A stretch of DNA of 64,000 nucleotides from contig OZ020254.1 in assembly GCA_963971285.1 (NCBI GenBank), positions 4,960,001 to 5,024,000 on the forward strand, in the 5' to 3' direction. Under the pieces are notes generated by a model. The model did no database searches, was not told the DNA's origin, and worked only from the letters and a program-made list of their open reading frames with translations. This DNA is from Astropecten irregularis (taxonomy: Eukaryota; Echinodermata; Asteroidea; Paxillosida; Astropectinidae). Positions 1 through 64,000 of this stretch are shown here, piece after piece (the stretch's first letter is position 1; each line of letters starts with the position of its first letter). The position numbers were made by a program, and so were the translations under genes.

Positions 1-349
1 TGGGGTTAGGGTTGGAATCAGAGCGATTTAGGGTTAAGAACTGGTCATAGGGTTGAATTTTGGGGGCTAGGTTTACAATTTAGGGGATTGGGTTGGAATT
101 TCGGCCGGCTAGGGTTACAATTTTGGGTCTAATGGGGTTAAAAGTTGGGCCACCTTCGTCTAAACAAAACTCGAAAGATGTAGAAAAGACAATGTAAGTT
201 GCGTAATACAAGGTTTTATGCGTATTAGGATTGATGTTTTCAGGAAATAATTAACAAAATCTGATGAGAAACTTGGTCTTATACAGTTTCTTTTCGTTCT
301 CGCCTCTCACAACAGAGTGGTGGCGCTATCACAAAATGGCTACCGATGC

Positions 350-361
350 GCCGCCATCTTG
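350..361 (-). promoter_or_regulatory. Perfect YY1-type motif in the satellite unit (one example; one per unit)
   Basis: Read on the minus strand this is CAAGATGGCGGC, the core motif bound by YY1-family zinc-finger proteins. It recurs at offset 349 from each unit start, for example 1311-1322. In long units the MITE begins only nine bases after it. Binding is not shown by sequence alone. Confidence 0.5.
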
Positions 362-898
362 TGACCTATAAGGGGGGTCAACTTTCAAAATTGGTTTTCC
401 AATTAGGCCCAAAATGTAGAGTTTATGACACTGATCTCATATGTGAAAACAAAATTGAAAAATATTATTGCGTTTTTCTACGGCACGGCTTAATGTGTTA
501 GGTCGTTGACCCGTGGTGGCCATACTAACGTGCACATTCTCCCTTATAATATTGTGTACACCCTATGGAAAGTCGGGCTCTGAATCCACATATTATTTCC
601 TCACAAAGTTATCTTATGGCTATTTTAGGATGCAATGATGCTCAGGCCATTACATATAGTTTAATTAATCAAGGCGAGGGTGTCATTTCACATGAAAAGG
701 TGGTGTAAGGTCAGGGTTGGCCTGTTTGGTTGTGGGGGGGGGGGGCGTTTAGGCTATTCCGTGGAATATTTCTGCCCCAGTATCCATATTAAGACATAAT
801 GATGAACTTTTTTGGGATTAATCAATGCATATTACATTTCACCAAATTTCGCTGTCCTTGAGAATAATCATTTCCCCTCTGAAAAGTGAGAAAGAGGC

Positions 899-1102
899 GA
901 TTAGGGTTGTCAGCGTGTGGGCGGGGCTTGCTAGGGTTGGGTCTTGGTCTGGAGCCCCGGCTGGGGTTAGGGTTGGAATCAGAGCGATTTAGGGTTAAGA
1001 ACTGGTCATAGGGTTGAATTTTGGGGGCTAGGTTTACAATTTAGGGGATTGGGTTGGAATTTCGGCCGGCTAGGGTTACAATTTTGGGTCTAATGGGGTT
1101 AA
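899..1102 (+). repeat. Telomere-like TTAGGG-variant cluster (one example; one per unit)
   Basis: About 200 bp spanning the unit junction contain TTAGGGTT, CTAGGGTT, TTTAGGGTTA, ATAGGGTT, TAGGTTTA and TTTAGGGG, around nine degenerate copies of the vertebrate and echinoderm-type telomere motif, spaced by unrelated sequence. The same cluster recurs at every unit junction of the array. The G-rich strand is the plus strand. I infer either an ancient telomeric seed or plain G-rich satellite drift. It is not a functional telomere tract because no perfect tandem TTAGGG run exists. Confidence 0.7.
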
Positions 1103-1331
1103 AAGTTGGGCCACCTTCGTCTAAACAAAACTCGAAAGATGTAGAAAAGACAATGTAAGTTGCGTAATACAAGGTTTTATGCGTATTAGGATTGATGTTT
1201 TCAGGAAATAATTAACAAAATCTGATGAGAAACTTGGTCTTATACAGTTTCTTTTCGTTCTCGCCTCTCACAACAGAGTGGTGGCGCTATCACAAAATGG
1301 CTACCGATGCGCCGCCATCTTGTGACCTATA

Positions 1332-1814
1332 GGGTGCACCACACTAAATAAACTCCCATTGACCTTAGTGTAAAATCCCTCAACTTCACAGTTCAAAAAA
1401 ACCCATCCAGAAGTTTCTCAGTTGTTGGTGCAATAGTGTAAATGATAGTGTGAACTCTCATCTACCCAATTCTTTTCAATTTTTGGTTGGGTAACCGATT
1501 GGATTTTTTTCTAATTGCCCCAAGAAAAAAACACCCCCGAAATGTCCTTCTTCCGTAACCGACTTGCTACGAGTTTTCATGAAGCAACCCTCCACGTTCA
1601 AGACAATGTAGGACCGGATTGTAAACCAAAATATCTCAAGTCTCTACAACAGGCTGAAGCACTGAACCCCCAGGTTGTCATAACCAGTCAAAATTACACA
1701 ATATATTAATTGCACGACCCCCCAAATTGCATATTTAAAAAACATTTGAGGGTACACACATTATGATAATCAGCTCGGCGCATTGATTTTTGAGCTATTT
1801 AGTGTGGTGCATCC
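1332..1814. mobile_element. Satellite-resident MITE, copy 1 (unit 2)
   Basis: A 483-bp insert absent from short units. Ends are inverted: GGGTGCACCACACTAAATA on the left, and the right end reads GGATGCACCACACTAAATA in reverse complement (18 of 19 match). It is flanked by TATA on both sides (1328-1331 and 1815-1818). The direct repeat can be read as up to CCTATA, so target-duplication length is uncertain (2-6 bp) and the superfamily is not assigned. It has no transposase, so it is non-autonomous. The only internal reading frame is about 55 codons from an ATG and resembles nothing I know. Confidence 0.88.
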
Positions 1815-2779
1815 TATAAGGGGGGTCAACTTTCAAAATTGGTTTTCCAATTAGGCCCAAAATGTAGAGTTTATGACACTGATCTCATATGTGAAAACAA
1901 AATTGAAAAATATTATTGCGTTTTTCTACGGCACGGCTTAATGTGTTAGGTCGTTGACCCGTGGTGGCCATACTAACGTGCACATTCTCCCTTATAATAT
2001 TGTGTACACCCTATGGAAAGTCGGGCTCTGAATCCACATATTATTTCCTCACAAAGTTATCTTATGGCTATTTTAGGATGCAATGATGCTCAGGCCATTA
2101 CATATAGTTTAATTAATCAAGGCGAGGGTGTCATTTCACATGAAAAGGTGGTGTAAGGTCAGGGTTGGCCTGTTTGGTTGTGGGGGGGGGGGGCGTTTAG
2201 GCTATTCCGTGGAATATTTCTGCCCCAGTATCCATATTAAGACATAATGATGAACTTTTTTGGGATTAATCAATGCATATTACATTTCACCAAATTTCGC
2301 TGTCCTTGAGAATAATCATTTCCCCTCTGAAAAGTGAGAAAGAGGCGATTAGGGTTGTCAGCGTGTGGGCGGGGCTTGCTAGGGTTGGGTCTTGGTCTGG
2401 AGCCCCGGCTGGGGTTAGGGTTGGAATCAGAGCGATTTAGGGTTAAGAACTGGTCATAGGGTTGAATTTTGGGGGCTAGGTTTACAATTTAGGGGATTGG
2501 GTTGGAATTTCGGCCGGCTAGGGTTACAATTTTGGGTCTAATGGGGTTAAAAGTTGGGCCACCTTCGTCTAAACAAAACTCGAAAGATGTAGAAAAGACA
2601 ATGTAAGTTGCGTAATACAAGGTTTTATGCGTATTAGGATTGATGTTTTCAGGAAATAATTAACAAAATCTGATGAGAAACTTGGTCTTATACAGTTTCT
2701 TTTCGTTCTCGCCTCTCACAACAGAGTGGTGGCGCTATCACAAAATGGCTACCGATGCGCCGCCATCTTGTGACCTATA

Positions 2780-3262
2780 GGGTGCACCACACTAAATAAA
2801 CTCCCATTGACCTTAGTGTAAAATCCCTCAACTTCACAGTTCAAAAAAACCCATCCAGAAGTTTCTCAGTTGTTGGTGCAATAGTGTAAATGATAGTGTG
2901 AACTCTCATCTACCCAATTCTTTTCAATTTTTGGTTGGGTAACCGATTGGATTTTTTTCTAATTGCCCCAAGAAAAAAACACCCCCGAAATGTCCTTCTT
3001 CCGTAACCGACTTGCTACGAGTTTTCATGAAGCAACCCTCCACGTTCAAGACAATGTAGGACCGGATTGTAAACCAAAATATCTCAAGTCTCTACAACAG
3101 GCTGAAGCACTGAACCCCCAGGTTGTCATAACCAGTCAAAATTACACAATATATTAATTGCACGACCCCCCAAATTGCATATTTAAAAAACATTTGAGGG
3201 TACACACATTATGATAATCAGCTCGGCGCATTGATTTTTGAGCTATTTAGTGTGGTGCATCC
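2780..3262. mobile_element. Satellite-resident MITE, copy 2 (unit 3)
   Basis: Same 483-bp element, inverted ends and TATA flanks as copy 1, at the same site and in the same orientation, inside the unit starting at 2410. Confidence 0.88.
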
Positions 3263-5187
3263 TATAAGGGGGGTCAACTTTCAAAATTGGTTTTCCAATT
3301 AGGCCCAAAATGTAGAGTTTATGACACTGATCTCATATGTGAAAACAAAATTGAAAAATATTATTGCGTTTTTCTACGGCACGGCTTAATGTGTTAGGTC
3401 GTTGACCCGTGGTGGCCATACTAACGTGCACATTCTCCCTTATAATATTGTGTACACCCTATGGAAAGTCGGGCTCTGAATCCACATATTATTTCCTCAC
3501 AAAGTTATCTTATGGCTATTTTAGGATGCAATGATGCTCAGGCCATTACATATAGTTTAATTAATCAAGGCGAGGGTGTCATTTCACATGAAAAGGTGGT
3601 GTAAGGTCAGGGTTGGCCTGTTTGGTTGTGGGGGGGGGGGCGTTTAGGCTATTCCGTGGAATATTTCTGCCCCAGTATCCATATTAAGACATAATGATGA
3701 ACTTTTTTGGGATTAATCAATGCATATTACATTTCACCAAATTTCGCTGTCCTTGAGAATAATCATTTCCCCTCTGAAAAGTGAGAAAGAGGCGATTAGG
3801 GTTGTCAGCGTGTGGGCGGGGCTTGCTAGGGTTGGGTCTTGGTCTGGAGCCCCGGCTGGGGTTAGGGTTGGAATCAGAGCGATTTAGGGTTAAGAACTGG
3901 TCATAGGGTTGAATTTTGGGGGCTAGGTTTACAATTTAGGGGATTGGGTTGGAATTTCGGCCGGCTAGGGTTACAATTTTGGGTCTAATGGGGTTAAAAG
4001 TTGGGCCACCTTCGTCTAAACAAAACTCGAAAGATGTAGAAAAGACAATGTAAGTTGCGTAATACAAGGTTTTATGCGTATTAGGATTGATGTTTTCAGG
4101 AAATAATTAACAAAATCTGATGAGAAACTTGGTCTTATACAGTTTCTTTTCGTTCTCGCCTCTCACAACAGAGTGGTGGCGCTATCACAAAATGGCTACC
4201 GATGCGCCGCCATCTTGTGACCTATAAGGGGGGTCAACTTTCAAAATTGGTTTTCCAATTAGGCCCAAAATGTAGAGTTTATGACACTGATCTCATATGT
4301 GAAAACAAAATTGAAAAATATTATTGCGTTTTTCTACGGCACGGCTTAATGTGTTAGGTCGTTGACCCGTGGTGGCCATACTAACGTGCACATTCTCCCT
4401 TATAATATTGTGTACACCCTATGGAAAGTCGGGCTCTGAATCCACATATTATTTCCTCACAAAGTTATCTTATGGCTATTTTAGGATGCAATGATGCTCA
4501 GGCCATTACATATAGTTTAATTAATCAAGGCGAGGGTGTCATTTCACATGAAAAGGTGGTGTAAGGTCAGGGTTGGCCTGTTTGGTTGTGGGGGGGGGGG
4601 GCGTTTAGGCTATTCCGTGGAATATTTCTGCCCCAGTATCCATATTAAGACATAATGATGAACTTTTTTGGGATTAATCAATGCATATTACATTTCACCA
4701 AATTTCGCTGTCCTTGAGAATAATCATTTCCCCTCTGAAAAGTGAGAAAGAGGCGATTAGGGTTGTCAGCGTGTGGGCGGGGCTTGCTAGGGTTGGGTCT
4801 TGGTCTGGAGCCCCGGCTGGGGTTAGGGTTGGAATCAGAGCGATTTAGGGTTAAGAACTGGTCATAGGGTTGAATTTTGGGGGCTAGGTTTACAATTTAG
4901 GGGATTGGGTTGGAATTTCGGCCGGCTAGGGTTACAATTTTGGGTCTAATGGGGTTAAAAGTTGGGCCACCTTCGTCTAAACAAAACTCGAAAGATGTAG
5001 AAAAGACAATGTAAGTTGCGTAATACAAGGTTTTATGCGTATTAGGATTGATGTTTTCAGGAAATAATTAACAAAATCTGATGAGAAACTTGGTCTTATA
5101 CAGTTTCTTTTCGTTCTCGCCTCTCACAACAGAGTGGTGGCGCTATCACAAAATGGCTACCGATGCGCCGCCATCTTGTGACCTATA

Positions 5188-5670
5188 GGGTGCACCACAC
5201 TAAATAAACTCCCATTGACCTTAGTGTAAAATCCCTCAACTTCACAGTTCAAAAAAACCCATCCAGAAGTTTCTCAGTTGTTGGTGCAATAGTGTAAATG
5301 ATAGTGTGAACTCTCATCTACCCAATTCTTTTCAATTTTTGGTTGGGTAACCGATTGGATTTTTTTCTAATTGCCCCAAGAAAAAAACACCCCCGAAATG
5401 TCCTTCTTCCGTAACCGACTTGCTACGAGTTTTCATGAAGCAACCCTCCACGTTCAAGACAATGTAGGACCGGATTGTAAACCAAAATATCTCAAGTCTC
5501 TACAACAGGCTGAAGCACTGAACCCCCAGGTTGTCATAACCAGTCAAAATTACACAATATATTAATTGCACGACCCCCCAAATTGCATATTTAAAAAACA
5601 TTTGAGGGTACACACATTATGATAATCAGCTCGGCGCATTGATTTTTGAGCTATTTAGTGTGGTGCATCC
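5188..5670. mobile_element. Satellite-resident MITE, copy 3 (unit 5)
   Basis: Same element and insertion site as copy 1. The preceding unit (3857-4817) is an empty-site unit. Confidence 0.88.
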
Positions 5671-7596
5671 TATAAGGGGGGTCAACTTTCAAAATTGGTT
5701 TTCCAATTAGGCCCAAAATGTAGAGTTTATGACACTGATCTCATATGTGAAAACAAAATTGAAAAATATTATTGCGTTTTTCTACGGCACGGCTTAATGT
5801 GTTAGGTCGTTGACCCGTGGTGGCCATACTAACGTGCACATTCTCCCTTATAATATTGTGTACACCCTATGGAAAGTCGGGCTCTGAATCCACATATTAT
5901 TTCCTCACAAAGTTATCTTATGGCTATTTTAGGATGCAATGATGCTCAGGCCATTACATATAGTTTAATTAATCAAGGCGAGGGTGTCATTTCACATGAA
6001 AAGGTGGTGTAAGGTCAGGGTTGGCCTGTTTGGTTGTGGGGGGGGGGGGGCGTTTAGGCTATTCCGTGGAATATTTCTGCCCCAGTATCCATATTAAGAC
6101 ATAATGATGAACTTTTTTGGGATTAATCAATGCATATTACATTTCACCAAATTTCGCTGTCCTTGAGAATAATCATTTCCCCTCTGAAAAGTGAGAAAGA
6201 GGCGATTAGGGTTGTCAGCGTGTGGGCGGGGCTTGCTAGGGTTGGGTCTTGGTCTGGAGCCCCGGCTGGGGTTAGGGTTGGAATCAGAGCGATTTAGGGT
6301 TAAGAACTGGTCATAGGGTTGAATTTTGGGGGCTAGGTTTACAATTTAGGGGATTGGGTTGGAATTTCGGCCGGCTAGGGTTACAATTTTGGGTCTAATG
6401 GGGTTAAAAGTTGGGCCACCTTCGTCTAAACAAAACTCGAAAGATGTAGAAAAGACAATGTAAGTTGCGTAATACAAGGTTTTATGCGTATTAGGATTGA
6501 TGTTTTCAGGAAATAATTAACAAAATCTGATGAGAAACTTGGTCTTATACAGTTTCTTTTCGTTCTCGCCTCTCACAACAGAGTGGTGGCGCTATCACAA
6601 AATGGCTACCGATGCGCCGCCATCTTGTGACCTATAAGGGGGGTCAACTTTCAAAATTGGTTTTCCAATTAGGCCCAAAATGTAGAGTTTATGACACTGA
6701 TCTCATATGTGAAAACAAAATTGAAAAATATTATTGCGTTTTTCTACGGCACGGCTTAATGTGTTAGGTCGTTGACCCGTGGTGGCCATACTAACGTGCA
6801 CATTCTCCCTTATAATATTGTGTACACCCTATGGAAAGTCGGGCTCTGAATCCACATATTATTTCCTCACAAAGTTATCTTATGGCTATTTTAGGATGCA
6901 ATGATGCTCAGGCCATTACATATAGTTTAATTAATCAAGGCGAGGGTGTCATTTCACATGAAAAGGTGGTGTAAGGTCAGGGTTGGCCTGTTTGGTTGTG
7001 GGGGGGGGGGCGTTTAGGCTATTCCGTGGAATATTTCTGCCCCAGTATCCATATTAAGACATAATGATGAACTTTTTTGGGATTAATCAATGCATATTAC
7101 ATTTCACCAAATTTCGCTGTCCTTGAGAATAATCATTTCCCCTCTGAAAAGTGAGAAAGAGGCGATTAGGGTTGTCAGCGTGTGGGCGGGGCTTGCTAGG
7201 GTTGGGTCTTGGTCTGGAGCCCCGGCTGGGGTTAGGGTTGGAATCAGAGCGATTTAGGGTTAAGAACTGGTCATAGGGTTGAATTTTGGGGGCTAGGTTT
7301 ACAATTTAGGGGATTGGGTTGGAATTTCGGCCGGCTAGGGTTACAATTTTGGGTCTAATGGGGTTAAAAGTTGGGCCACCTTCGTCTAAACAAAACTCGA
7401 AAGATGTAGAAAAGACAATGTAAGTTGCGTAATACAAGGTTTTATGCGTATTAGGATTGATGTTTTCAGGAAATAATTAACAAAATCTGATGAGAAACTT
7501 GGTCTTATACAGTTTCTTTTCGTTCTCGCCTCTCACAACAGAGTGGTGGCGCTATCACAAAATGGCTACCGATGCGCCGCCATCTTGTGACCTATA

Positions 7597-8079
7597 GGGT
7601 GCACCACACTAAATAAACTCCCATTGACCTTAGTGTAAAATCCCTCAACTTCACAGTTCAAAAAAACCCATCCAGAAGTTTCTCAGTTGTTGGTGCAATA
7701 GTGTAAATGATAGTGTGAACTCTCATCTACCCAATTCTTTTCAATTTTTGGTTGGGTAACCGATTGGATTTTTTTCTAATTGCCCCAAGAAAAAAACACC
7801 CCCGAAATGTCCTTCTTCCGTAACCGACTTGCTACGAGTTTTCATGAAGCAACCCTCCACGTTCAAGACAATGTAGGACCGGATTGTAAACCAAAATATC
7901 TCAAGTCTCTACAACAGGCTGAAGCACTGAACCCCCAGGTTGTCATAACCAGTCAAAATTACACAATATATTAATTGCACGACCCCCCAAATTGCATATT
8001 TAAAAAACATTTGAGGGTACACACATTATGATAATCAGCTCGGCGCATTGATTTTTGAGCTATTTAGTGTGGTGCATCC
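7597..8079. mobile_element. Satellite-resident MITE, copy 4 (unit 7)
   Basis: Same element and insertion site. Its host unit (7227-8676) carries the longest poly-G run in the array, 14. Confidence 0.88.
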
Positions 8080-10007
8080 TATAAGGGGGGTCAACTTTCA
8101 AAATTGGTTTTCCAATTAGGCCCAAAATGTAGAGTTTATGACACTGATCTCATATGTGAAAACAAAATTGAAAAATATTATTGCGTTTTTCTACGGCACG
8201 GCTTAATGTGTTAGGTCGTTGACCCGTGGTGGCCATACTAACGTGCACATTCTCCCTTATAATATTGTGTACACCCTATGGAAAGTCGGGCTCTGAATCC
8301 ACATATTATTTCCTCACAAAGTTATCTTATGGCTATTTTAGGATGCAATGATGCTCAGGCCATTACATATAGTTTAATTAATCAAGGCGAGGGTGTCATT
8401 TCACATGAAAAGGTGGTGTAAGGTCAGGGTTGGCCTGTTTGGTTGTGGGGGGGGGGGGGGCGTTTAGGCTATTCCGTGGAATATTTCTGCCCCAGTATCC
8501 ATATTAAGACATAATGATGAACTTTTTTGGGATTAATCAATGCATATTACATTTCACCAAATTTCGCTGTCCTTGAGAATAATCATTTCCCCTCTGAAAA
8601 GTGAGAAAGAGGCGATTAGGGTTGTCAGCGTGTGGGCGGGGCTTGCTAGGGTTGGGTCTTGGTCTGGAGCCCCGGCTGGGGTTAGGGTTGGAATCAGAGC
8701 GATTTAGGGTTAAGAACTGGTCATAGGGTTGAATTTTGGGGGCTAGGTTTACAATTTAGGGGATTGGGTTGGAATTTCGGCCGGCTAGGGTTACAATTTT
8801 GGGTCTAATGGGGTTAAAAGTTGGGCCACCTTCGTCTAAACAAAACTCGAAAGATGTAGAAAAGACAATGTAAGTTGCGTAATACAAGGTTTTATGCGTA
8901 TTAGGATTGATGTTTTCAGGAAATAATTAACAAAATCTGATGAGAAACTTGGTCTTATACAGTTTCTTTTCGTTCTCGCCTCTCACAACAGAGTGGTGGC
9001 GCTATCACAAAATGGCTACCGATGCGCCGCCATCTTGTGACCTATAAGGGGGGTCAACTTTCAAAATTGGTTTTCCAATTAGGCCCAAAATGTAGAGTTT
9101 ATGACACTGATCTCATATGTGAAAACAAAATTGAAAAATATTATTGCGTTTTTCTACGGCACGGCTTAATGTGTTAGGTCGTTGACCCGTGGTGGCCATA
9201 CTAACGTGCACATTCTCCCTTATAATATTGTGTACACCCTATGGAAAGTCGGGCTCTGAATCCACATATTATTTCCTCACAAAGTTATCTTATGGCTATT
9301 TTAGGATGCAATGATGCTCAGGCCATTACATATAGTTTAATTAATCAAGGCGAGGGTGTCATTTCACATGAAAAGGTGGTGTAAGGTCAGGGTTGGCCTG
9401 TTTGGTTGTGGGGGGGGGGGGCGTTTAGGCTATTCCGTGGAATATTTCTGCCCCAGTATCCATATTAAGACATAATGATGAACTTTTTTGGGATTAATCA
9501 ATGCATATTACATTTCACCAAATTTCGCTGTCCTTGAGAATAATCATTTCCCCTCTGAAAAGTGAGAAAGAGGCGATTAGGGTTGTCAGCGTGTGGGCGG
9601 GGCTTGCTAGGGTTGGGTCTTGGTCTGGAGCCCCGGCTGGGGTTAGGGTTGGAATCAGAGCGATTTAGGGTTAAGAACTGGTCATAGGGTTGAATTTTGG
9701 GGGCTAGGTTTACAATTTAGGGGATTGGGTTGGAATTTCGGCCGGCTAGGGTTACAATTTTGGGTCTAATGGGGTTAAAAGTTGGGCCACCTTCGTCTAA
9801 ACAAAACTCGAAAGATGTAGAAAAGACAATGTAAGTTGCGTAATACAAGGTTTTATGCGTATTAGGATTGATGTTTTCAGGAAATAATTAACAAAATCTG
9901 ATGAGAAACTTGGTCTTATACAGTTTCTTTTCGTTCTCGCCTCTCACAACAGAGTGGTGGCGCTATCACAAAATGGCTACCGATGCGCCGCCATCTTGTG
10001 ACCTATA

Positions 10008-10490
10008 GGGTGCACCACACTAAATAAACTCCCATTGACCTTAGTGTAAAATCCCTCAACTTCACAGTTCAAAAAAACCCATCCAGAAGTTTCTCAGTTG
10101 TTGGTGCAATAGTGTAAATGATAGTGTGAACTCTCATCTACCCAATTCTTTTCAATTTTTGGTTGGGTAACCGATTGGATTTTTTTCTAATTGCCCCAAG
10201 AAAAAAACACCCCCGAAATGTCCTTCTTCCGTAACCGACTTGCTACGAGTTTTCATGAAGCAACCCTCCACGTTCAAGACAATGTAGGACCGGATTGTAA
10301 ACCAAAATATCTCAAGTCTCTACAACAGGCTGAAGCACTGAACCCCCAGGTTGTCATAACCAGTCAAAATTACACAATATATTAATTGCACGACCCCCCA
10401 AATTGCATATTTAAAAAACATTTGAGGGTACACACATTATGATAATCAGCTCGGCGCATTGATTTTTGAGCTATTTAGTGTGGTGCATCC
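10008..10490. mobile_element. Satellite-resident MITE, copy 5 (unit 9)
   Basis: Same element and insertion site. This is the first of three consecutive long units. Confidence 0.88.
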
Positions 10491-11455: not shown

Positions 11456-11938
11456 GGGTGCACCACACTAAATAAACTCCCATTGACCTTAGTGTAAAAT
11501 CCCTCAACTTCACAGTTCAAAAAAACCCATCCAGAAGTTTCTCAGTTGTTGGTGCAATAGTGTAAATGATAGTGTGAACTCTCATCTACCCAATTCTTTT
11601 CAATTTTTGGTTGGGTAACCGATTGGATTTTTTTCTAATTGCCCCAAGAAAAAAACACCCCCGAAATGTCCTTCTTCCGTAACCGACTTGCTACGAGTTT
11701 TCATGAAGCAACCCTCCACGTTCAAGACAATGTAGGACCGGATTGTAAACCAAAATATCTCAAGTCTCTACAACAGGCTGAAGCACTGAACCCCCAGGTT
11801 GTCATAACCAGTCAAAATTACACAATATATTAATTGCACGACCCCCCAAATTGCATATTTAAAAAACATTTGAGGGTACACACATTATGATAATCAGCTC
11901 GGCGCATTGATTTTTGAGCTATTTAGTGTGGTGCATCC
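11456..11938. mobile_element. Satellite-resident MITE, copy 6 (unit 10)
   Basis: Same element and insertion site, in the middle of the run of three long units. Confidence 0.88.
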
Positions 11939-12903: not shown

Positions 12904-13386
12904 GGGTGCACCACACTAAATAAACTCCCATTGACCTTAGTGTAAAATCCCTCAACTTCACAGTTCAAAAAAACCCATCCAGAAGTTTCTCAGTTGTTGG
13001 TGCAATAGTGTAAATGATAGTGTGAACTCTCATCTACCCAATTCTTTTCAATTTTTGGTTGGGTAACCGATTGGATTTTTTTCTAATTGCCCCAAGAAAA
13101 AAACACCCCCGAAATGTCCTTCTTCCGTAACCGACTTGCTACGAGTTTTCATGAAGCAACCCTCCACGTTCAAGACAATGTAGGACCGGATTGTAAACCA
13201 AAATATCTCAAGTCTCTACAACAGGCTGAAGCACTGAACCCCCAGGTTGTCATAACCAGTCAAAATTACACAATATATTAATTGCACGACCCCCCAAATT
13301 GCATATTTAAAAAACATTTGAGGGTACACACATTATGATAATCAGCTCGGCGCATTGATTTTTGAGCTATTTAGTGTGGTGCATCC
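12904..13386. mobile_element. Satellite-resident MITE, copy 7 (unit 11)
   Basis: Same element and insertion site, in the last of three consecutive long units. Confidence 0.88.
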
Positions 13387-15312: not shown

Positions 15313-15795
15313 GGGTGCACCACACTAAATAAACTCCCATTGACCTTAGTGTAAAATCCCTCAACTTCACAGTTCAAAAAAACCCATCCAGAAGTTTCTC
15401 AGTTGTTGGTGCAATAGTGTAAATGATAGTGTGAACTCTCATCTACCCAATTCTTTTCAATTTTTGGTTGGGTAACCGATTGGATTTTTTTCTAATTGCC
15501 CCAAGAAAAAAACACCCCCGAAATGTCCTTCTTCCGTAACCGACTTGCTACGAGTTTTCATGAAGCAACCCTCCACGTTCAAGACAATGTAGGACCGGAT
15601 TGTAAACCAAAATATCTCAAGTCTCTACAACAGGCTGAAGCACTGAACCCCCAGGTTGTCATAACCAGTCAAAATTACACAATATATTAATTGCACGACC
15701 CCCCAAATTGCATATTTAAAAAACATTTGAGGGTACACACATTATGATAATCAGCTCGGCGCATTGATTTTTGAGCTATTTAGTGTGGTGCATCC
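15313..15795. mobile_element. Satellite-resident MITE, copy 8 (unit 13)
   Basis: Same element and insertion site, after the empty unit at 13982-14942. Confidence 0.88.
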
Positions 15796-16760
15796 TATAA
15801 GGGGGGTCAACTTTCAAAATTGGTTTTCCAATTAGGCCCAAAATGTAGAGTTTATGACACTGATCTCATATGTGAAAACAAAATTGAAAAATATTATTGC
15901 GTTTTTCTACGGCACGGCTTAATGTGTTAGGTCGTTGACCCGTGGTGGCCATACTAACGTGCACATTCTCCCTTATAATATTGTGTACACCCTATGGAAA
16001 GTCGGGCTCTGAATCCACATATTATTTCCTCACAAAGTTATCTTATGGCTATTTTAGGATGCAATGATGCTCAGGCCATTACATATAGTTTAATTAATCA
16101 AGGCGAGGGTGTCATTTCACATGAAAAGGTGGTGTAAGGTCAGGGTTGGCCTGTTTGGTTGTGGGGGGGGGGGGCGTTTAGGCTATTCCGTGGAATATTT
16201 CTGCCCCAGTATCCATATTAAGACATAATGATGAACTTTTTTGGGATTAATCAATGCATATTACATTTCACCAAATTTCGCTGTCCTTGAGAATAATCAT
16301 TTCCCCTCTGAAAAGTGAGAAAGAGGCGATTAGGGTTGTCAGCGTGTGGGCGGGGCTTGCTAGGGTTGGGTCTTGGTCTGGAGCCCCGGCTGGGGTTAGG
16401 GTTGGAATCAGAGCGATTTAGGGTTAAGAACTGGTCATAGGGTTGAATTTTGGGGGCTAGGTTTACAATTTAGGGGATTGGGTTGGAATTTCGGCCGGCT
16501 AGGGTTACAATTTTGGGTCTAATGGGGTTAAAAGTTGGGCCACCTTCGTCTAAACAAAACTCGAAAGATGTAGAAAAGACAATGTAAGTTGCGTAATACA
16601 AGGTTTTATGCGTATTAGGATTGATGTTTTCAGGAAATAATTAACAAAATCTGATGAGAAACTTGGTCTTATACAGTTTCTTTTCGTTCTCGCCTCTCAC
16701 AACAGAGTGGTGGCGCTATCACAAAATGGCTACCGATGCGCCGCCATCTTGTGACCTATA

Positions 16761-17243
16761 GGGTGCACCACACTAAATAAACTCCCATTGACCTTAGTGT
16801 AAAATCCCTCAACTTCACAGTTCAAAAAAACCCATCCAGAAGTTTCTCAGTTGTTGGTGCAATAGTGTAAATGATAGTGTGAACTCTCATCTACCCAATT
16901 CTTTTCAATTTTTGGTTGGGTAACCGATTGGATTTTTTTCTAATTGCCCCAAGAAAAAAACACCCCCGAAATGTCCTTCTTCCGTAACCGACTTGCTACG
17001 AGTTTTCATGAAGCAACCCTCCACGTTCAAGACAATGTAGGACCGGATTGTAAACCAAAATATCTCAAGTCTCTACAACAGGCTGAAGCACTGAACCCCC
17101 AGGTTGTCATAACCAGTCAAAATTACACAATATATTAATTGCACGACCCCCCAAATTGCATATTTAAAAAACATTTGAGGGTACACACATTATGATAATC
17201 AGCTCGGCGCATTGATTTTTGAGCTATTTAGTGTGGTGCATCC
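16761..17243. mobile_element. Satellite-resident MITE, copy 9 (unit 14)
   Basis: Same element and insertion site, in the second of a pair of long units. Confidence 0.88.
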
Positions 17244-19169
17244 TATAAGGGGGGTCAACTTTCAAAATTGGTTTTCCAATTAGGCCCAAAATGTAGAGTT
17301 TATGACACTGATCTCATATGTGAAAACAAAATTGAAAAATATTATTGCGTTTTTCTACGGCACGGCTTAATGTGTTAGGTCGTTGACCCGTGGTGGCCAT
17401 ACTAACGTGCACATTCTCCCTTATAATATTGTGTACACCCTATGGAAAGTCGGGCTCTGAATCCACATATTATTTCCTCACAAAGTTATCTTATGGCTAT
17501 TTTAGGATGCAATGATGCTCAGGCCATTACATATAGTTTAATTAATCAAGGCGAGGGTGTCATTTCACATGAAAAGGTGGTGTAAGGTCAGGGTTGGCCT
17601 GTTTGGTTGTGGGGGGGGGGGGCGTTTAGGCTATTCCGTGGAATATTTCTGCCCCAGTATCCATATTAAGACATAATGATGAACTTTTTTGGGATTAATC
17701 AATGCATATTACATTTCACCAAATTTCGCTGTCCTTGAGAATAATCATTTCCCCTCTGAAAAGTGAGAAAGAGGCGATTAGGGTTGTCAGCGTGTGGGCG
17801 GGGCTTGCTAGGGTTGGGTCTTGGTCTGGAGCCCCGGCTGGGGTTAGGGTTGGAATCAGAGCGATTTAGGGTTAAGAACTGGTCATAGGGTTGAATTTTG
17901 GGGGCTAGGTTTACAATTTAGGGGATTGGGTTGGAATTTCGGCCGGCTAGGGTTACAATTTTGGGTCTAATGGGGTTAAAAGTTGGGCCACCTTCGTCTA
18001 AACAAAACTCGAAAGATGTAGAAAAGACAATGTAAGTTGCGTAATACAAGGTTTTATGCGTATTAGGATTGATGTTTTCAGGAAATAATTAACAAAATCT
18101 GATGAGAAACTTGGTCTTATACAGTTTCTTTTCGTTCTCGCCTCTCACAACAGAGTGGTGGCGCTATCACAAAATGGCTACCGATGCGCCGCCATCTTGT
18201 GACCTATAAGGGGGGTCAACTTTCAAAATTGGTTTTCCAATTAGGCCCAAAATGTAGAGTTTATGACACTGATCTCATATGTGAAAACAAAATTGAAAAA
18301 TATTATTGCGTTTTTCTACGGCACGGCTTAATGTGTTAGGTCGTTGACCCGTGGTGGCCATACTAACGTGCACATTCTCCCTTATAATATTGTGTACACC
18401 CTATGGAAAGTCGGGCTCTGAATCCACATATTATTTCCTCACAAAGTTATCTTATGGCTATTTTAGGATGCAATGATGCTCAGGCCATTACATATAGTTT
18501 AATTAATCAAGGCGAGGGTGTCATTTCACATGAAAAGGTGGTGTAAGGTCAGGGTTGGCCTGTTTGGTTGTGGGGGGGGGGGGCGTTTAGGCTATTCCGT
18601 GGAATATTTCTGCCCCAGTATCCATATTAAGACATAATGATGAACTTTTTTGGGATTAATCAATGCATATTACATTTCACCAAATTTCGCTGTCCTTGAG
18701 AATAATCATTTCCCCTCTGAAAAGTGAGAAAGAGGCGATTAGGGTTGTCAGCGTGTGGGCGGGGCTTGCTAGGGTTGGGTCTTGGTCTGGAGCCCCGGCT
18801 GGGGTTAGGGTTGGAATCAGAGCGATTTAGGGTTAAGAACTGGTCATAGGGTTGAATTTTGGGGGCTAGGTTTACAATTTAGGGGATTGGGTTGGAATTT
18901 CGGCCGGCTAGGGTTACAATTTTGGGTCTAATGGGGTTAAAAGTTGGGCCACCTTCGTCTAAACAAAACTCGAAAGATGTAGAAAAGACAATGTAAGTTG
19001 CGTAATACAAGGTTTTATGCGTATTAGGATTGATGTTTTCAGGAAATAATTAACAAAATCTGATGAGAAACTTGGTCTTATACAGTTTCTTTTCGTTCTC
19101 GCCTCTCACAACAGAGTGGTGGCGCTATCACAAAATGGCTACCGATGCGCCGCCATCTTGTGACCTATA

Positions 19170-19652
19170 GGGTGCACCACACTAAATAAACTCCCATTGA
19201 CCTTAGTGTAAAATCCCTCAACTTCACAGTTCAAAAAAACCCATCCAGAAGTTTCTCAGTTGTTGGTGCAATAGTGTAAATGATAGTGTGAACTCTCATC
19301 TACCCAATTCTTTTCAATTTTTGGTTGGGTAACCGATTGGATTTTTTTCTAATTGCCCCAAGAAAAAAACACCCCCGAAATGTCCTTCTTCCGTAACCGA
19401 CTTGCTACGAGTTTTCATGAAGCAACCCTCCACGTTCAAGACAATGTAGGACCGGATTGTAAACCAAAATATCTCAAGTCTCTACAACAGGCTGAAGCAC
19501 TGAACCCCCAGGTTGTCATAACCAGTCAAAATTACACAATATATTAATTGCACGACCCCCCAAATTGCATATTTAAAAAACATTTGAGGGTACACACATT
19601 ATGATAATCAGCTCGGCGCATTGATTTTTGAGCTATTTAGTGTGGTGCATCC
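19170..19652. mobile_element. Satellite-resident MITE, copy 10 (unit 16)
   Basis: Same element and insertion site. It is followed by two empty units (20248-22169). Confidence 0.88.
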
Positions 19653-22539
19653 TATAAGGGGGGTCAACTTTCAAAATTGGTTTTCCAATTAGGCCCAAAA
19701 TGTAGAGTTTATGACACTGATCTCATATGTGAAAACAAAATTGAAAAATATTATTGCGTTTTTCTACGGCACGGCTTAATGTGTTAGGTCGTTGACCCGT
19801 GGTGGCCATACTAACGTGCACATTCTCCCTTATAATATTGTGTACACCCTATGGAAAGTCGGGCTCTGAATCCACATATTATTTCCTCACAAAGTTATCT
19901 TATGGCTATTTTAGGATGCAATGATGCTCAGGCCATTACATATAGTTTAATTAATCAAGGCGAGGGTGTCATTTCACATGAAAAGGTGGTGTAAGGTCAG
20001 GGTTGGCCTGTTTGGTTGTGGGGGGGGGGGGCGTTTAGGCTATTCCGTGGAATATTTCTGCCCCAGTATCCATATTAAGACATAATGATGAACTTTTTTG
20101 GGATTAATCAATGCATATTACATTTCACCAAATTTCGCTGTCCTTGAGAATAATCATTTCCCCTCTGAAAAGTGAGAAAGAGGCGATTAGGGTTGTCAGC
20201 GTGTGGGCGGGGCTTGCTAGGGTTGGGTCTTGGTCTGGAGCCCCGGCTGGGGTTAGGGTTGGAATCAGAGCGATTTAGGGTTAAGAACTGGTCATAGGGT
20301 TGAATTTTGGGGGCTAGGTTTACAATTTAGGGGATTGGGTTGGAATTTCGGCCGGCTAGGGTTACAATTTTGGGTCTAATGGGGTTAAAAGTTGGGCCAC
20401 CTTCGTCTAAACAAAACTCGAAAGATGTAGAAAAGACAATGTAAGTTGCGTAATACAAGGTTTTATGCGTATTAGGATTGATGTTTTCAGGAAATAATTA
20501 ACAAAATCTGATGAGAAACTTGGTCTTATACAGTTTCTTTTCGTTCTCGCCTCTCACAACAGAGTGGTGGCGCTATCACAAAATGGCTACCGATGCGCCG
20601 CCATCTTGTGACCTATAAGGGGGGTCAACTTTCAAAATTGGTTTTCCAATTAGGCCCAAAATGTAGAGTTTATGACACTGATCTCATATGTGAAAACAAA
20701 ATTGAAAAATATTATTGCGTTTTTCTACGGCACGGCTTAATGTGTTAGGTCGTTGACCCGTGGTGGCCATACTAACGTGCACATTCTCCCTTATAATATT
20801 GTGTACACCCTATGGAAAGTCGGGCTCTGAATCCACATATTATTTCCTCACAAAGTTATCTTATGGCTATTTTAGGATGCAATGATGCTCAGGCCATTAC
20901 ATATAGTTTAATTAATCAAGGCGAGGGTGTCATTTCACATGAAAAGGTGGTGTAAGGTCAGGGTTGGCCTGTTTGGTTGTGGGGGGGGGGGGCGTTTAGG
21001 CTATTCCGTGGAATATTTCTGCCCCAGTATCCATATTAAGACATAATGATGAACTTTTTTGGGATTAATCAATGCATATTACATTTCACCAAATTTCGCT
21101 GTCCTTGAGAATAATCATTTCCCCTCTGAAAAGTGAGAAAGAGGCGATTAGGGTTGTCAGCGTGTGGGCGGGGCTTGCTAGGGTTGGGTCTTGGTCTGGA
21201 GCCCCGGCTGGGGTTAGGGTTGGAATCAGAGCGATTTAGGGTTAAGAACTGGTCATAGGGTTGAATTTTGGGGGCTAGGTTTACAATTTAGGGGATTGGG
21301 TTGGAATTTCGGCCGGCTAGGGTTACAATTTTGGGTCTAATGGGGTTAAAAGTTGGGCCACCTTCGTCTAAACAAAACTCGAAAGATGTAGAAAAGACAA
21401 TGTAAGTTGCGTAATACAAGGTTTTATGCGTATTAGGATTGATGTTTTCAGGAAATAATTAACAAAATCTGATGAGAAACTTGGTCTTATACAGTTTCTT
21501 TTCGTTCTCGCCTCTCACAACAGAGTGGTGGCGCTATCACAAAATGGCTACCGATGCGCCGCCATCTTGTGACCTATAAGGGGGGTCAACTTTCAAAATT
21601 GGTTTTCCAATTAGGCCCAAAATGTAGAGTTTATGACACTGATCTCATATGTGAAAACAAAATTGAAAAATATTATTGCGTTTTTCTACGGCACGGCTTA
21701 ATGTGTTAGGTCGTTGACCCGTGGTGGCCATACTAACGTGCACATTCTCCCTTATAATATTGTGTACACCCTATGGAAAGTCGGGCTCTGAATCCACATA
21801 TTATTTCCTCACAAAGTTATCTTATGGCTATTTTAGGATGCAATGATGCTCAGGCCATTACATATAGTTTAATTAATCAAGGCGAGGGTGTCATTTCACA
21901 TGAAAAGGTGGTGTAAGGTCAGGGTTGGCCTGTTTGGTTGTGGGGGGGGGGGGCGTTTAGGCTATTCCGTGGAATATTTCTGCCCCAGTATCCATATTAA
22001 GACATAATGATGAACTTTTTTGGGATTAATCAATGCATATTACATTTCACCAAATTTCGCTGTCCTTGAGAATAATCATTTCCCCTCTGAAAAGTGAGAA
22101 AGAGGCGATTAGGGTTGTCAGCGTGTGGGCGGGGCTTGCTAGGGTTGGGTCTTGGTCTGGAGCCCCGGCTGGGGTTAGGGTTGGAATCAGAGCGATTTAG
22201 GGTTAAGAACTGGTCATAGGGTTGAATTTTGGGGGCTAGGTTTACAATTTAGGGGATTGGGTTGGAATTTCGGCCGGCTAGGGTTACAATTTTGGGTCTA
22301 ATGGGGTTAAAAGTTGGGCCACCTTCGTCTAAACAAAACTCGAAAGATGTAGAAAAGACAATGTAAGTTGCGTAATACAAGGTTTTATGCGTATTAGGAT
22401 TGATGTTTTCAGGAAATAATTAACAAAATCTGATGAGAAACTTGGTCTTATACAGTTTCTTTTCGTTCTCGCCTCTCACAACAGAGTGGTGGCGCTATCA
22501 CAAAATGGCTACCGATGCGCCGCCATCTTGTGACCTATA

Positions 22540-23022
22540 GGGTGCACCACACTAAATAAACTCCCATTGACCTTAGTGTAAAATCCCTCAACTTCACAGT
22601 TCAAAAAAACCCATCCAGAAGTTTCTCAGTTGTTGGTGCAATAGTGTAAATGATAGTGTGAACTCTCATCTACCCAATTCTTTTCAATTTTTGGTTGGGT
22701 AACCGATTGGATTTTTTTCTAATTGCCCCAAGAAAAAAACACCCCCGAAATGTCCTTCTTCCGTAACCGACTTGCTACGAGTTTTCATGAAGCAACCCTC
22801 CACGTTCAAGACAATGTAGGACCGGATTGTAAACCAAAATATCTCAAGTCTCTACAACAGGCTGAAGCACTGAACCCCCAGGTTGTCATAACCAGTCAAA
22901 ATTACACAATATATTAATTGCACGACCCCCCAAATTGCATATTTAAAAAACATTTGAGGGTACACACATTATGATAATCAGCTCGGCGCATTGATTTTTG
23001 AGCTATTTAGTGTGGTGCATCC
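22540..23022. mobile_element. Satellite-resident MITE, copy 11 (unit 19)
   Basis: Same element and insertion site. It is followed by two empty units (23618-25540). Confidence 0.88.
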
Positions 23023-25910
23023 TATAAGGGGGGTCAACTTTCAAAATTGGTTTTCCAATTAGGCCCAAAATGTAGAGTTTATGACACTGATCTCATATGT
23101 GAAAACAAAATTGAAAAATATTATTGCGTTTTTCTACGGCACGGCTTAATGTGTTAGGTCGTTGACCCGTGGTGGCCATACTAACGTGCACATTCTCCCT
23201 TATAATATTGTGTACACCCTATGGAAAGTCGGGCTCTGAATCCACATATTATTTCCTCACAAAGTTATCTTATGGCTATTTTAGGATGCAATGATGCTCA
23301 GGCCATTACATATAGTTTAATTAATCAAGGCGAGGGTGTCATTTCACATGAAAAGGTGGTGTAAGGTCAGGGTTGGCCTGTTTGGTTGTGGGGGGGGGGG
23401 GCGTTTAGGCTATTCCGTGGAATATTTCTGCCCCAGTATCCATATTAAGACATAATGATGAACTTTTTTGGGATTAATCAATGCATATTACATTTCACCA
23501 AATTTCGCTGTCCTTGAGAATAATCATTTCCCCTCTGAAAAGTGAGAAAGAGGCGATTAGGGTTGTCAGCGTGTGGGCGGGGCTTGCTAGGGTTGGGTCT
23601 TGGTCTGGAGCCCCGGCTGGGGTTAGGGTTGGAATCAGAGCGATTTAGGGTTAAGAACTGGTCATAGGGTTGAATTTTGGGGGCTAGGTTTACAATTTAG
23701 GGGATTGGGTTGGAATTTCGGCCGGCTAGGGTTACAATTTTGGGTCTAATGGGGTTAAAAGTTGGGCCACCTTCGTCTAAACAAAACTCGAAAGATGTAG
23801 AAAAGACAATGTAAGTTGCGTAATACAAGGTTTTATGCGTATTAGGATTGATGTTTTCAGGAAATAATTAACAAAATCTGATGAGAAACTTGGTCTTATA
23901 CAGTTTCTTTTCGTTCTCGCCTCTCACAACAGAGTGGTGGCGCTATCACAAAATGGCTACCGATGCGCCGCCATCTTGTGACCTATAAGGGGGGTCAACT
24001 TTCAAAATTGGTTTTCCAATTAGGCCCAAAATGTAGAGTTTATGACACTGATCTCATATGTGAAAACAAAATTGAAAAATATTATTGCGTTTTTCTACGG
24101 CACGGCTTAATGTGTTAGGTCGTTGACCCGTGGTGGCCATACTAACGTGCACATTCTCCCTTATAATATTGTGTACACCCTATGGAAAGTCGGGCTCTGA
24201 ATCCACATATTATTTCCTCACAAAGTTATCTTATGGCTATTTTAGGATGCAATGATGCTCAGGCCATTACATATAGTTTAATTAATCAAGGCGAGGGTGT
24301 CATTTCACATGAAAAGGTGGTGTAAGGTCAGGGTTGGCCTGTTTGGTTGTGGGGGGGGGGGGCGTTTAGGCTATTCCGTGGAATATTTCTGCCCCAGTAT
24401 CCATATTAAGACATAATGATGAACTTTTTTGGGATTAATCAATGCATATTACATTTCACCAAATTTCGCTGTCCTTGAGAATAATCATTTCCCCTCTGAA
24501 AAGTGAGAAAGAGGCGATTAGGGTTGTCAGCGTGTGGGCGGGGCTTGCTAGGGTTGGGTCTTGGTCTGGAGCCCCGGCTGGGGTTAGGGTTGGAATCAGA
24601 GCGATTTAGGGTTAAGAACTGGTCATAGGGTTGAATTTTGGGGGCTAGGTTTACAATTTAGGGGATTGGGTTGGAATTTCGGCCGGCTAGGGTTACAATT
24701 TTGGGTCTAATGGGGTTAAAAGTTGGGCCACCTTCGTCTAAACAAAACTCGAAAGATGTAGAAAAGACAATGTAAGTTGCGTAATACAAGGTTTTATGCG
24801 TATTAGGATTGATGTTTTCAGGAAATAATTAACAAAATCTGATGAGAAACTTGGTCTTATACAGTTTCTTTTCGTTCTCGCCTCTCACAACAGAGTGGTG
24901 GCGCTATCACAAAATGGCTACCGATGCGCCGCCATCTTGTGACCTATAAGGGGGGTCAACTTTCAAAATTGGTTTTCCAATTAGGCCCAAAATGTAGAGT
25001 TTATGACACTGATCTCATATGTGAAAACAAAATTGAAAAATATTATTGCGTTTTTCTACGGCACGGCTTAATGTGTTAGGTCGTTGACCCGTGGTGGCCA
25101 TACTAACGTGCACATTCTCCCTTATAATATTGTGTACACCCTATGGAAAGTCGGGCTCTGAATCCACATATTATTTCCTCACAAAGTTATCTTATGGCTA
25201 TTTTAGGATGCAATGATGCTCAGGCCATTACATATAGTTTAATTAATCAAGGCGAGGGTGTCATTTCACATGAAAAGGTGGTGTAAGGTCAGGGTTGGCC
25301 TGTTTGGTTGTGGGGGGGGGGGGGCGTTTAGGCTATTCCGTGGAATATTTCTGCCCCAGTATCCATATTAAGACATAATGATGAACTTTTTTGGGATTAA
25401 TCAATGCATATTACATTTCACCAAATTTCGCTGTCCTTGAGAATAATCATTTCCCCTCTGAAAAGTGAGAAAGAGGCGATTAGGGTTGTCAGCGTGTGGG
25501 CGGGGCTTGCTAGGGTTGGGTCTTGGTCTGGAGCCCCGGCTGGGGTTAGGGTTGGAATCAGAGCGATTTAGGGTTAAGAACTGGTCATAGGGTTGAATTT
25601 TGGGGGCTAGGTTTACAATTTAGGGGATTGGGTTGGAATTTCGGCCGGCTAGGGTTACAATTTTGGGTCTAATGGGGTTAAAAGTTGGGCCACCTTCGTC
25701 TAAACAAAACTCGAAAGATGTAGAAAAGACAATGTAAGTTGCGTAATACAAGGTTTTATGCGTATTAGGATTGATGTTTTCAGGAAATAATTAACAAAAT
25801 CTGATGAGAAACTTGGTCTTATACAGTTTCTTTTCGTTCTCGCCTCTCACAACAGAGTGGTGGCGCTATCACAAAATGGCTACCGATGCGCCGCCATCTT
25901 GTGACCTATA

Positions 25911-26393
25911 GGGTGCACCACACTAAATAAACTCCCATTGACCTTAGTGTAAAATCCCTCAACTTCACAGTTCAAAAAAACCCATCCAGAAGTTTCTCAG
26001 TTGTTGGTGCAATAGTGTAAATGATAGTGTGAACTCTCATCTACCCAATTCTTTTCAATTTTTGGTTGGGTAACCGATTGGATTTTTTTCTAATTGCCCC
26101 AAGAAAAAAACACCCCCGAAATGTCCTTCTTCCGTAACCGACTTGCTACGAGTTTTCATGAAGCAACCCTCCACGTTCAAGACAATGTAGGACCGGATTG
26201 TAAACCAAAATATCTCAAGTCTCTACAACAGGCTGAAGCACTGAACCCCCAGGTTGTCATAACCAGTCAAAATTACACAATATATTAATTGCACGACCCC
26301 CCAAATTGCATATTTAAAAAACATTTGAGGGTACACACATTATGATAATCAGCTCGGCGCATTGATTTTTGAGCTATTTAGTGTGGTGCATCC
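25911..26393. mobile_element. Satellite-resident MITE, copy 12, forming the array edge
   Basis: Same element with intact left TATA flank, but the sequence after its right end (GTGCATCC) is CAAAGGGG, not TATAAGGGGGG. The satellite therefore ends precisely at the transposon terminus, with no right target duplication. This implies a recombination or an independent insertion context at this end. Confidence 0.88.
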
Positions 26394-26580
26394 CAAAGGG
26401 GACTGCGAAATGGAAACGGAGGCATCAGGCTCCGTCTAAGGCTTCGGCTTCGGCTCCATTTCGTGAATCCAGTTTACAAAAAAATAACACTAAGGTCAAA
26501 AATCATAGCTTTTTGGATGCGGTTCGCAAGTAGATTCTCTGGTTTGAAAAGGAAAACAGAGCTTCAGCTTAAATGAAAAA
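26394..26580. repeat. Diverged copy of the CGGAGGC-ended dispersed repeat
   Basis: Immediately right of the array. It shares GAAACGGAGGC, GGCTCCGT, TAGATTCTCTGGTTTGAAAAGG and AGAGCTTCAGCT-type words with better copies at 41734-41963 and 45425-45565 (some in inverted orientation). It looks rearranged, and no target duplication is visible. Confidence 0.5.
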
Positions 26581-26639
26581 TCACAACTTGTCTGCCATCT
26601 GCTCATGGAGGAAGAAATCCTTCCTTCATGCTGTATCTG

Positions 26640-27623: not shown

Positions 27624-30912
<3,289 letters not shown>

Positions 30913-54935: not shown

Positions 54936-64000
<9,065 letters not shown>

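What the first reader, a model, noticed from the sequence alone, without database searches (positions are those of the whole stretch)
1..26393. Satellite array in which a MITE has been captured and co-amplified
Twelve of 22 units carry the same 483-bp element at exactly the same base, with the same TATA flanks and orientation, while ten units keep the intact empty site. Twelve independent insertions at one base are implausible, so one insertion event was followed by amplification, and composite and empty units were then shuffled. The irregular S/L order is a readable record of unequal exchange or conversion.
Basis: seen in the sequence. Interest (0 to 1): 0.72.

Follow-up and report, generated by a model that had tools for sequence, protein, structure and literature searches.

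The report
Mobile satellite array bounded by MITEs
A long tandem repeat array next to an animal metal-transporter gene turns out to be the inside of a jumping element: a small transposon stands at both of its ends, and the same transposon-repeat-transposon package has been inserted at other places in the genome.

Summary
In detail: 22 unit starts, 12 with an identical 483-bp element (M), 10 without. The interpretation must change. The array runs 8.3 kb past the window's left edge (34,700 bp, 16 M, 28 backbone units B) and begins and ends exactly at M. Outside lies a 4-bp duplication, CAAA|M...M|CAAA; internal M copies sit in TATA. Elsewhere in the genome M-(B)n-M packages recur, n from 0 to about 30. 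In 18 of 20 packages whose two end positions I read, the outer 4 bp are identical, with letters that vary from locus to locus. Of 38 exact B hits listed on contigs C1 and C8, 38 have an exact M hit within 3.2 kb, 37 on both sides. M and B co-vary among loci, and three groups of near-identical packages occupy different target sites. Best reading: a MITE-like family whose paired copies act as ends of a composite DNA transposon (macrotransposon), with a satellite as cargo that expands between them. Each ingredient is known; my searches showed no described family of this form. S/L order in such long identical arrays depends on the assembly.

The parts
1..26393 (+). right 26.4 kb of a 34,700-bp M-(B)n-M composite (whole: contig C18:4951694-4986393, i.e. 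window -8306 to 26393)
1332..1814 (+). M, 483-bp MITE-like element, internal copy flanked by TATA on both sides; 19-bp TIR GGGTGCACCACACTAAATA / TATTTAGTGTGGTGCATCC, one mismatch
2780..3262 (+). M, internal copy
5188..5670 (+). M, internal copy
7597..8079 (+). M, internal copy
10008..10490 (+). M, internal copy
11456..11938 (+). M, internal copy
12904..13386 (+). M, internal copy
15313..15795 (+). M, internal copy
16761..17243 (+). M, internal copy
19170..19652 (+). M, internal copy
22540..23022 (+). M, internal copy
25911..26393 (+). M, right terminal copy; its right end is the end of the composite
26394..26397 (.). right copy of the 4-bp target-site duplication CAAA (left copy at contig C18:4951690-4951693, outside the window)
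367..370 (.). TATA, intact empty M site at a B|B junction (one of the 10 M-less sites in the window)
371..1327 (+). one B backbone unit between its TATA sites (957 bp; period 961 with one TATA)

Best explanation
The array is the interior of a composite DNA transposon (macrotransposon). M is a non-autonomous, MITE-like DNA transposon with 19-bp terminal inverted repeats that makes 4-bp target-site duplications. Two M copies in the same orientation with B between them behave as one element: a transposase supplied from elsewhere uses the outer left end of the first M and the outer right end of the last M and carries everything between to a new site (co-inheritance and outer duplications are shown; the transposase and the reaction are inferred). 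The commonest package is M-B-M, 1,931 bp. It probably arose when a segment containing an M that sat in TATA was duplicated in tandem, which puts TATA on both sides of every inner M and leaves M-B-M (inferred). Once M and B are in tandem, unequal exchange between M or B copies, or transposition-coupled rolling-circle replication, changes the number of units; at the window locus this gave 16 M and 28 B with no base substitution among them (the identity is shown; the mechanism is inferred). B|B junctions with a single TATA came from exchange with M-less units or from precise loss of M (inferred, not separated).
For: Both array ends are exact M termini with CAAA outside and TATA inside. Outer 4 bp identical in 18 of 20 packages whose two end positions were read: CAAA, TTGG, CTAG, CTCA, ATGA, ATAA, CTCA, CGAG (8 of 8); CTAG, CTCG, ATCT, GTTG, TGAA, ACCA, ATCT (7 of 9); ATAA, ATAG, TTCT (3 of 3). 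M left end with at most one mismatch: 648 genome hits, backward-pattern control 0. The first 100 listed places, all exact matches, form 58 clusters; 20 hold two or more M, with spacings equal to one B in 32 of 42. B 24-mer with at most one mismatch: 274 hits; of 38 exact B hits on C1+C8, 38 have an exact M hit within 3.2 kb, 37 on both sides. Three groups share near-identical M and B at different target sites: {C1 array, C1d GTTG, C1e CTCG}, {C30 CTAG, C1c ATCT}, {C17 CGAG, C19 TTGG}. Mantel over 11 loci: left M vs last M r=0.84, left M vs B 0.50, last M vs B 0.56, P at most 0.0005. The right end GGTGCACCC at C1:38813936 would make the inverted repeat perfect.
Against: No autonomous partner or transposase was searched for, so none is known. 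2 of 20 packages lack matching outer 4 bp (C1:33821620 TATA/CTAG; C8:2990631 right end not where expected). Of 5 lone left ends sampled at even steps from 38, 1 has a duplication (TGAC); one has B upstream, one is followed by TATAAGG, one has unlike flanks (TATA/TCAA) and one lacks its right end. With the first 8 loci left M vs B gave r=0.30, P=0.10. The 11-locus test leaves out C30 (one full M) and C1b (perhaps the same array as C1a); with C8a also left out P for left M vs B is 0.0011. Loci were chosen by similarity to the window's M or by contig order, and several interiors are inferred from spacing. No empty site was looked up. Whether 34.7 kb moved at once or a small package grew in place is not shown.
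Confidence: 0.85

Rival explanations
1. A resident B satellite received one M insertion at TATA and both were amplified in place; the array is not mobile.
For: The single TATA at B|B junctions is exactly an unoccupied M site, and M copies sit at one base.
Against: Array ends are M termini with a 4-bp duplication outside, here and in 18 of 20 packages read. No B hit without M among 38 exact hits on C1+C8. M-B-M occurs at separate loci.
Confidence: 0.05
2. M is an LTR and M-B-M a small non-autonomous LTR retrotransposon (TRIM-like); lone M are solo LTRs and arrays arise by LTR recombination.
For: Direct terminal repeats, M without B, tandem forms sharing M, 4-bp duplications. biv-TRIM of bivalves also has solo and tandem forms (PMC6934838, abstract and section 5).
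Against: M ends in a 19-bp inverted repeat, GGGTGCACC...GGTGCA(T/C)CC, not TG...CA. The sequence after the left M is TATAAGGGGGGTCAAC, with no TGG start, and that before the right M is GTGACCTATA, not purine-rich (read by eye). B|B junctions that lack exactly M and one TATA are not an expected product of LTR recombination.
Confidence: 0.07
3. Circular DNA carrying B and M integrates by homologous recombination into single M copies already present; there is no composite transposition.
For: It gives the same M...M structure inside the resident copy's duplication; M copies without B exist.
Against: Terminal M copies carry the same locus-group variants as inner M and co-vary with B. In three groups both M and B are near-identical at different target sites, which would need pre-existing near-identical M copies each time.
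Confidence: 0.07
4. The irregular order is in part an assembly product: the units are identical over 34.7 kb, so unit number and order may be wrong although the ends are right.
For: 0 substitutions among 16 M and 28 B; two C1 arrays with identical M and B in the copies compared end in N gaps.
Against: Ends are anchored in non-array sequence; small packages (M-BB-M, M-B-M-B-M) that long reads can span show the same arrangement. Poly-G length differs between units.
Confidence: 0.25

Closest known systems
Ac/Ds macrotransposons and Composite Insertions of maize, including McClintock's bz1-m4-D6856 (PMC9910405: passages; PMC4270019: passages and section 10)
   Same: two nearby elements act as ends of one large transposon; DNA between them moves; tandem duplications separated by the element; a 28-kb macrotransposon that left an excision footprint; rolling-circle replication proposed
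   Different: there, laboratory alleles with 8-bp duplications and unique host DNA; here, a dispersed family with 4-bp duplications and a fixed 961-bp cargo in tandem, up to tens of kb
MITEs with associated tandem repeats (miDNA4 and Xstir of Xenopus; via the review PMC12628747, section 6 part 1; originals not seen)
   Same: a MITE disperses satellite-like repeats whose number varies
   Different: in miDNA4 the repeats lie inside one MITE and in Xstir they may derive from the MITE's interior; here whole MITE-like elements stand at both ends and between repeats
Tetris foldback element and TIR-220 satellite, Drosophila virilis (PMC4079207: abstract and section 20)
   Same: tandem repeats amplify within a DNA transposon into long arrays
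   Different: the repeats are part of the inverted arms, and amplification may have disrupted the element; here the ends persist
TE dimers by double insertion into a shared target duplication (McGurk and Barbash, via PMC12628747 section 6; original not seen)
   Same: right-end/4 bp/left-end abutments at 11 places
   Different: does not explain the B cargo
biv-TRIM of bivalves (PMC6934838: abstract and section 5)
   Same: direct terminal repeats, solo and tandem forms
   Different: LTR type: 202-218-bp repeats, 77-80-bp interior, purine tract present

Membership tests
MITE (for M) | terminal inverted repeats | tested here: met
   19 bp with one mismatch; 23 bp at 96% counting TATA
MITE (for M) | fixed-length target-site duplication | tested here: met
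   4 bp at 4 copies without seen B: TTGT, ATGT, TTCA, TGAC (ends only); 4 of the 5 lone left ends sampled were not clean
MITE (for M) | short, non-coding, many copies | tested here: met
   483 bp; longest frame listed inside it 64 aa (bacterial start codons); 648 left ends
MITE (for M) | autonomous relative with the same ends | not tested
   no transposase search was made; superfamily left open
macrotransposon / composite DNA transposon | two elements bound a segment, and one target duplication lies outside the pair | tested here: met
   18 of 20 packages
macrotransposon / composite DNA transposon | ends and cargo inherited together | tested here: met
   not significant for left M vs B with 8 loci
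macrotransposon / composite DNA transposon | excision or new insertion observed | not testable with these tools
   single assembly
TRIM / LTR retrotransposon | TG...CA ends | tested here: not met
   ends GGG...(T/C)CC are set by the duplications
TRIM / LTR retrotransposon | primer-binding site after the left repeat and purine tract before the right one | tested here: not met
   read by eye; no tRNA comparison was run
satellite DNA (for B) | long head-to-tail array | tested here: met
   28 B in 34.7 kb; C15: 31 exact B hits over 49.1 kb with one 8.5-kb stretch without hits
satellite DNA (for B) | exists as arrays independent of transposon ends | tested here: inconclusive
   0 of 38 exact B hits on C1+C8 without M; other contigs and diverged copies not checked
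Helitron | no target-site duplication, no terminal inverted repeats (recalled) | tested here: not met
   inverted repeats and 4-bp duplications present

The most novel reading that the evidence does not exclude
Whole satellite arrays, tens of kilobases long, jump as cargo of a DNA transposon: MITE pairs not only carry the repeat but drive its amplification (transposition-coupled rolling-circle re-replication), so that arrays arrive pre-amplified and internally identical at each new site. This would be a transposition-based route for seeding satellites beside genes.
Probability: 0.25. Interest if true: 0.8.

Novelty: new variant of a known kind. Interest (0 to 1): 0.62.

Why it matters
How satellites spread to new chromosomal places is an old question. 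Here carrier, cargo and growth can be read together: small packages (M-B-M) at separate sites with intact target duplications, and a few arrays of about 20 to 50 kb. Because arrays have their own target duplications and locus-specific variants, one can ask when each inserted and whether it grew before or after. It also suggests in a natural genome what maize macrotransposons show in laboratory alleles: two short elements are enough to mobilise what lies between them.

Tried and rejected
Rejected: twelve independent insertions at one base (all copies identical, same register); resident satellite with a captured MITE; LTR/TRIM nature (ends; no PBS or PPT seen by eye); Helitron (inverted repeats and duplications). 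Rfam and tRNA scans of the window were empty. Folding M as a single strand gave nothing beyond the paired ends, z = -1.3. Under-dispersion of M spacing is modest and absent in C17. Congruence of left M and B was not significant with 8 loci, significant with 11. A paired-end search for M-like ends elsewhere in the 224 kb gave nothing. Left undone: genome-wide counts of M-to-B, B-to-M and B|B junctions (asked and again in 116-118, the first also in 93, 96, 98, 100, 103, 105, 108, 110, 111, 114; did not complete), a search for the autonomous partner, a search for an M-less donor of B, a look-up of the empty site, and the right end of the C15 array. In the list I read 9 of 14 pairs, 2 of 3 triples, the quadruple and 5 of 38 lone ends. 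Literature searches listed no paper on a MITE-bounded satellite family of this form; I saw listings only, and most subscription papers are not held.
Full report
Observation. The window's left 26,393 bases are a head-to-tail array of a 961-bp backbone (B). Twelve of 22 unit starts are followed by a copy of a 483-bp element (M) inserted after CTATA; ten keep the empty TATA. The genome that holds the window is searchable (G000, 475.7 Mb, 168 contigs; window = C18:4960001-5024000), so I read 160 kb to the left.

Both ends. The array starts at C18:4951694 and ends at C18:4986393 (window 26393), 34,700 bp. It starts with the first base of an M and ends with the last base of an M...TTTGCAAA|M-TATA...TATA-M|CAAAGGGG.... 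Thus CAAA is duplicated outside and TATA inside. All 16 M are identical; the 28 B differ only in a poly-G tract and show no substitution. B runs between M are 3,2,1,2,1,2,2,2,1,1,2,1,2,3,3.

Other loci. C19 holds M-BB-M in TTGG, and C30 a partly deleted form in CTAG. A search with M returned 41 matches; only 40 of 1,593 candidates were scored. Loci from it gave C23 M-B-M (CTCA), C28 M-B-M-B-M (ATGA), C18b M-B-M (CTCA), C17 with 16 B (CGAG; last M split by about 920 bp), C10 M-TATA-M in ATAA, and single M at C12, C21 and C27 (TTGT, ATGT, TTCA). The C1 array (CTAT on the left) is M-BB repeated, with one BBB and one B, and runs into an N gap.

Census. The M left-end 21-mer with at most one mismatch has 648 genome hits and 0 for the backward control. 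The 100 listed places are all exact matches, on C1, C8 and part of C9; copies with one mismatch are counted but not listed. The 100 fall into 58 clusters: 38 lone left ends, 14 pairs, 3 triples, one each of 4, 9 and 12. Their 42 spacings equal one B in 32, two in 8, three in 1 and none in 1. A B 24-mer has 274 hits with at most one mismatch; again the listed ones are exact. On C1 and C8, which both lists cover for exact hits, 38 of 38 B hits have an M hit within 3.2 kb on the same strand, 37 on both sides; the exception (C1:665368) lies close to an N gap. Diverged copies and other contigs were not tested.

Outer duplications. From the list I read the ends of 9 of 14 pairs: 7 match over 4 bp, one does not (C1:33821620, TATA/CTAG), and one lacks the expected right end (C8:2990631). 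The quadruple and 2 of 3 triples match (ATAA, ATAG, TTCT, left end of the quadruple). With the eight earlier packages this is 18 of 20. For four of the nine pairs the interior was later read and is M-B-M; for the others, the triples and the quadruple it is inferred from spacing and B hits. Not countable: the C1:447k and C1:648k arrays (one end in N) and C15 (right end not reached). The second base of the duplication is T in 14 of 18. Of 5 lone left ends taken at even steps from the 38, one has a clean duplication (TGAC); one has B upstream, one is followed by TATAAGG, one has TATA/TCAA and one lacks its right end. Lone M are therefore probably fewer than 38 of 58 suggests.

Co-movement. Terminal and inner M of a locus share the locus's variants, and these go with B variants: C19 and C17 share M C32G, A192G, T314C, T376C and B A436G, T447G, T483G, A792G; C1 and C30 share M T179G, G290T, T314C and B G280A, C636T, A642T. 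With five more stretches, three groups emerge in which M and B are both near-identical while target sites differ: the C1 arrays with C1d (GTTG) and C1e (CTCG), M 0 and B 0-4 substitutions per kb; C30 (CTAG; one full M) with C1c (ATCT), M 0 and B 5 per kb; C17 (CGAG) with C19 (TTGG), M 2-6 and B 0 per kb. Between groups M differ mostly by 6-25 per kb (down to 2-4 for the last M among C18, C18b, C23 and C28) and B by 10-27, or 43-54 against C8a. Mantel tests on 11 loci (C30 and C1b left out): left M vs last M 0.84, left M vs B 0.50, last M vs B 0.56, P at most 0.0005; without C8a 0.83, 0.53 (P=0.0011) and 0.68. With the first 8 loci left M vs B was 0.30, P=0.10.

Mechanism. I take M-B-M to be a composite of two MITE-like elements moved as one. 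Shown: outer duplications, shared history, no free B among the exact hits on two contigs. Inferred: transposase in trans, origin by tandem duplication of a segment holding one M, and growth by unequal exchange or rolling-circle replication. A right M end meets a left M end over 4 bp at 11 places, with TATA three times and other linkers otherwise (only the ends were seen there, except C10, and one place reads the same on both strands, so its orientation is open). Double insertion at one target would give this. M spacing is more even than random placement in C18 (P=0.023) and C1 (P=0.009), not in C17 (P=0.97), as expected if blocks M-B or M-BB are copied and shifted by one B now and then. Within-locus substitutions are 0 at C18 and C28, at most 1 among B at C1, up to 3 (M) and 5 (B) at C17, 1 at C19, and 4 and 3 between the two M of C18b and C23: the large array here is young or recently homogenised.

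Comparison. In maize, paired Ac/fAc ends move the DNA between them as macrotransposons, make Composite Insertions by re-replication, and rolling-circle replication is proposed for tandem copies separated by Ds in bz1-m4-D6856 (PMC4270019 passages and section 10; PMC9910405 passages). Satellite repeats associated with single MITEs, foldback arm repeats and TE dimers are known (PMC12628747 section 6; PMC4079207 section 20). This family works like the first and disperses a satellite like the second. I therefore call it a new variant of a known kind.

Limits. One assembly; unit order in long identical arrays may be wrong; the superfamily of M is open; loci were taken by similarity and contig order. 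The organism was not identified. The window holds an open frame with a CNNM domain 1.1 kb to the right of the array, hence an animal gene region (inference).

Noticed in passing
window 27504-29069 (+): Long open frame with a CNNM domain (Pfam PF01595, E 1.3e-32; best solved chains are CNNM4), 1.1 kb right of the array.
   Followed up: partly
window 42094-42504 (-): Open frame with one WD40 match; frames on the same strand at 43012-43401 and 45610-45981 had no Pfam match.
   Followed up: no
window 39221-39575: Separate tandem repeat of 35 bp, 10.3 copies.
   Followed up: no
window 55198-55264: 12-bp tandem repeat inside a frame rich in Thr, Pro, Ser and Ala (54936-55574, minus strand); no Pfam match.
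   Followed up: no
G000 C1:447410-467400 and C1:648194-666100 (L031, L035, L038, L041, L078, L079, L082): Two array stretches in opposite orientation, identical in the M and B copies compared apart from the poly-G tract, each open at an N gap and each with CTAT at its other end: perhaps one array, with the piece between the gaps placed the wrong way round in the assembly.
   Followed up: partly
G000 C8:36553179-36553183 (L061): Two M-B-M packages (by spacing and B hits) abut with a 5-bp linker TATAA inside an ATAA duplication.
   Followed up: no
C17 array, right terminal M (L037): The terminal M is interrupted by about 920 bp of other sequence.
   Followed up: no
window 26400-27400: The right flank holds several short interspersed repeats that recur many times in the surrounding 224 kb.
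   Followed up: no
window 1-130 and each unit: B contains clustered TAGGGTT motifs, seen as 20- and 42-bp tandem periods.
   Followed up: no
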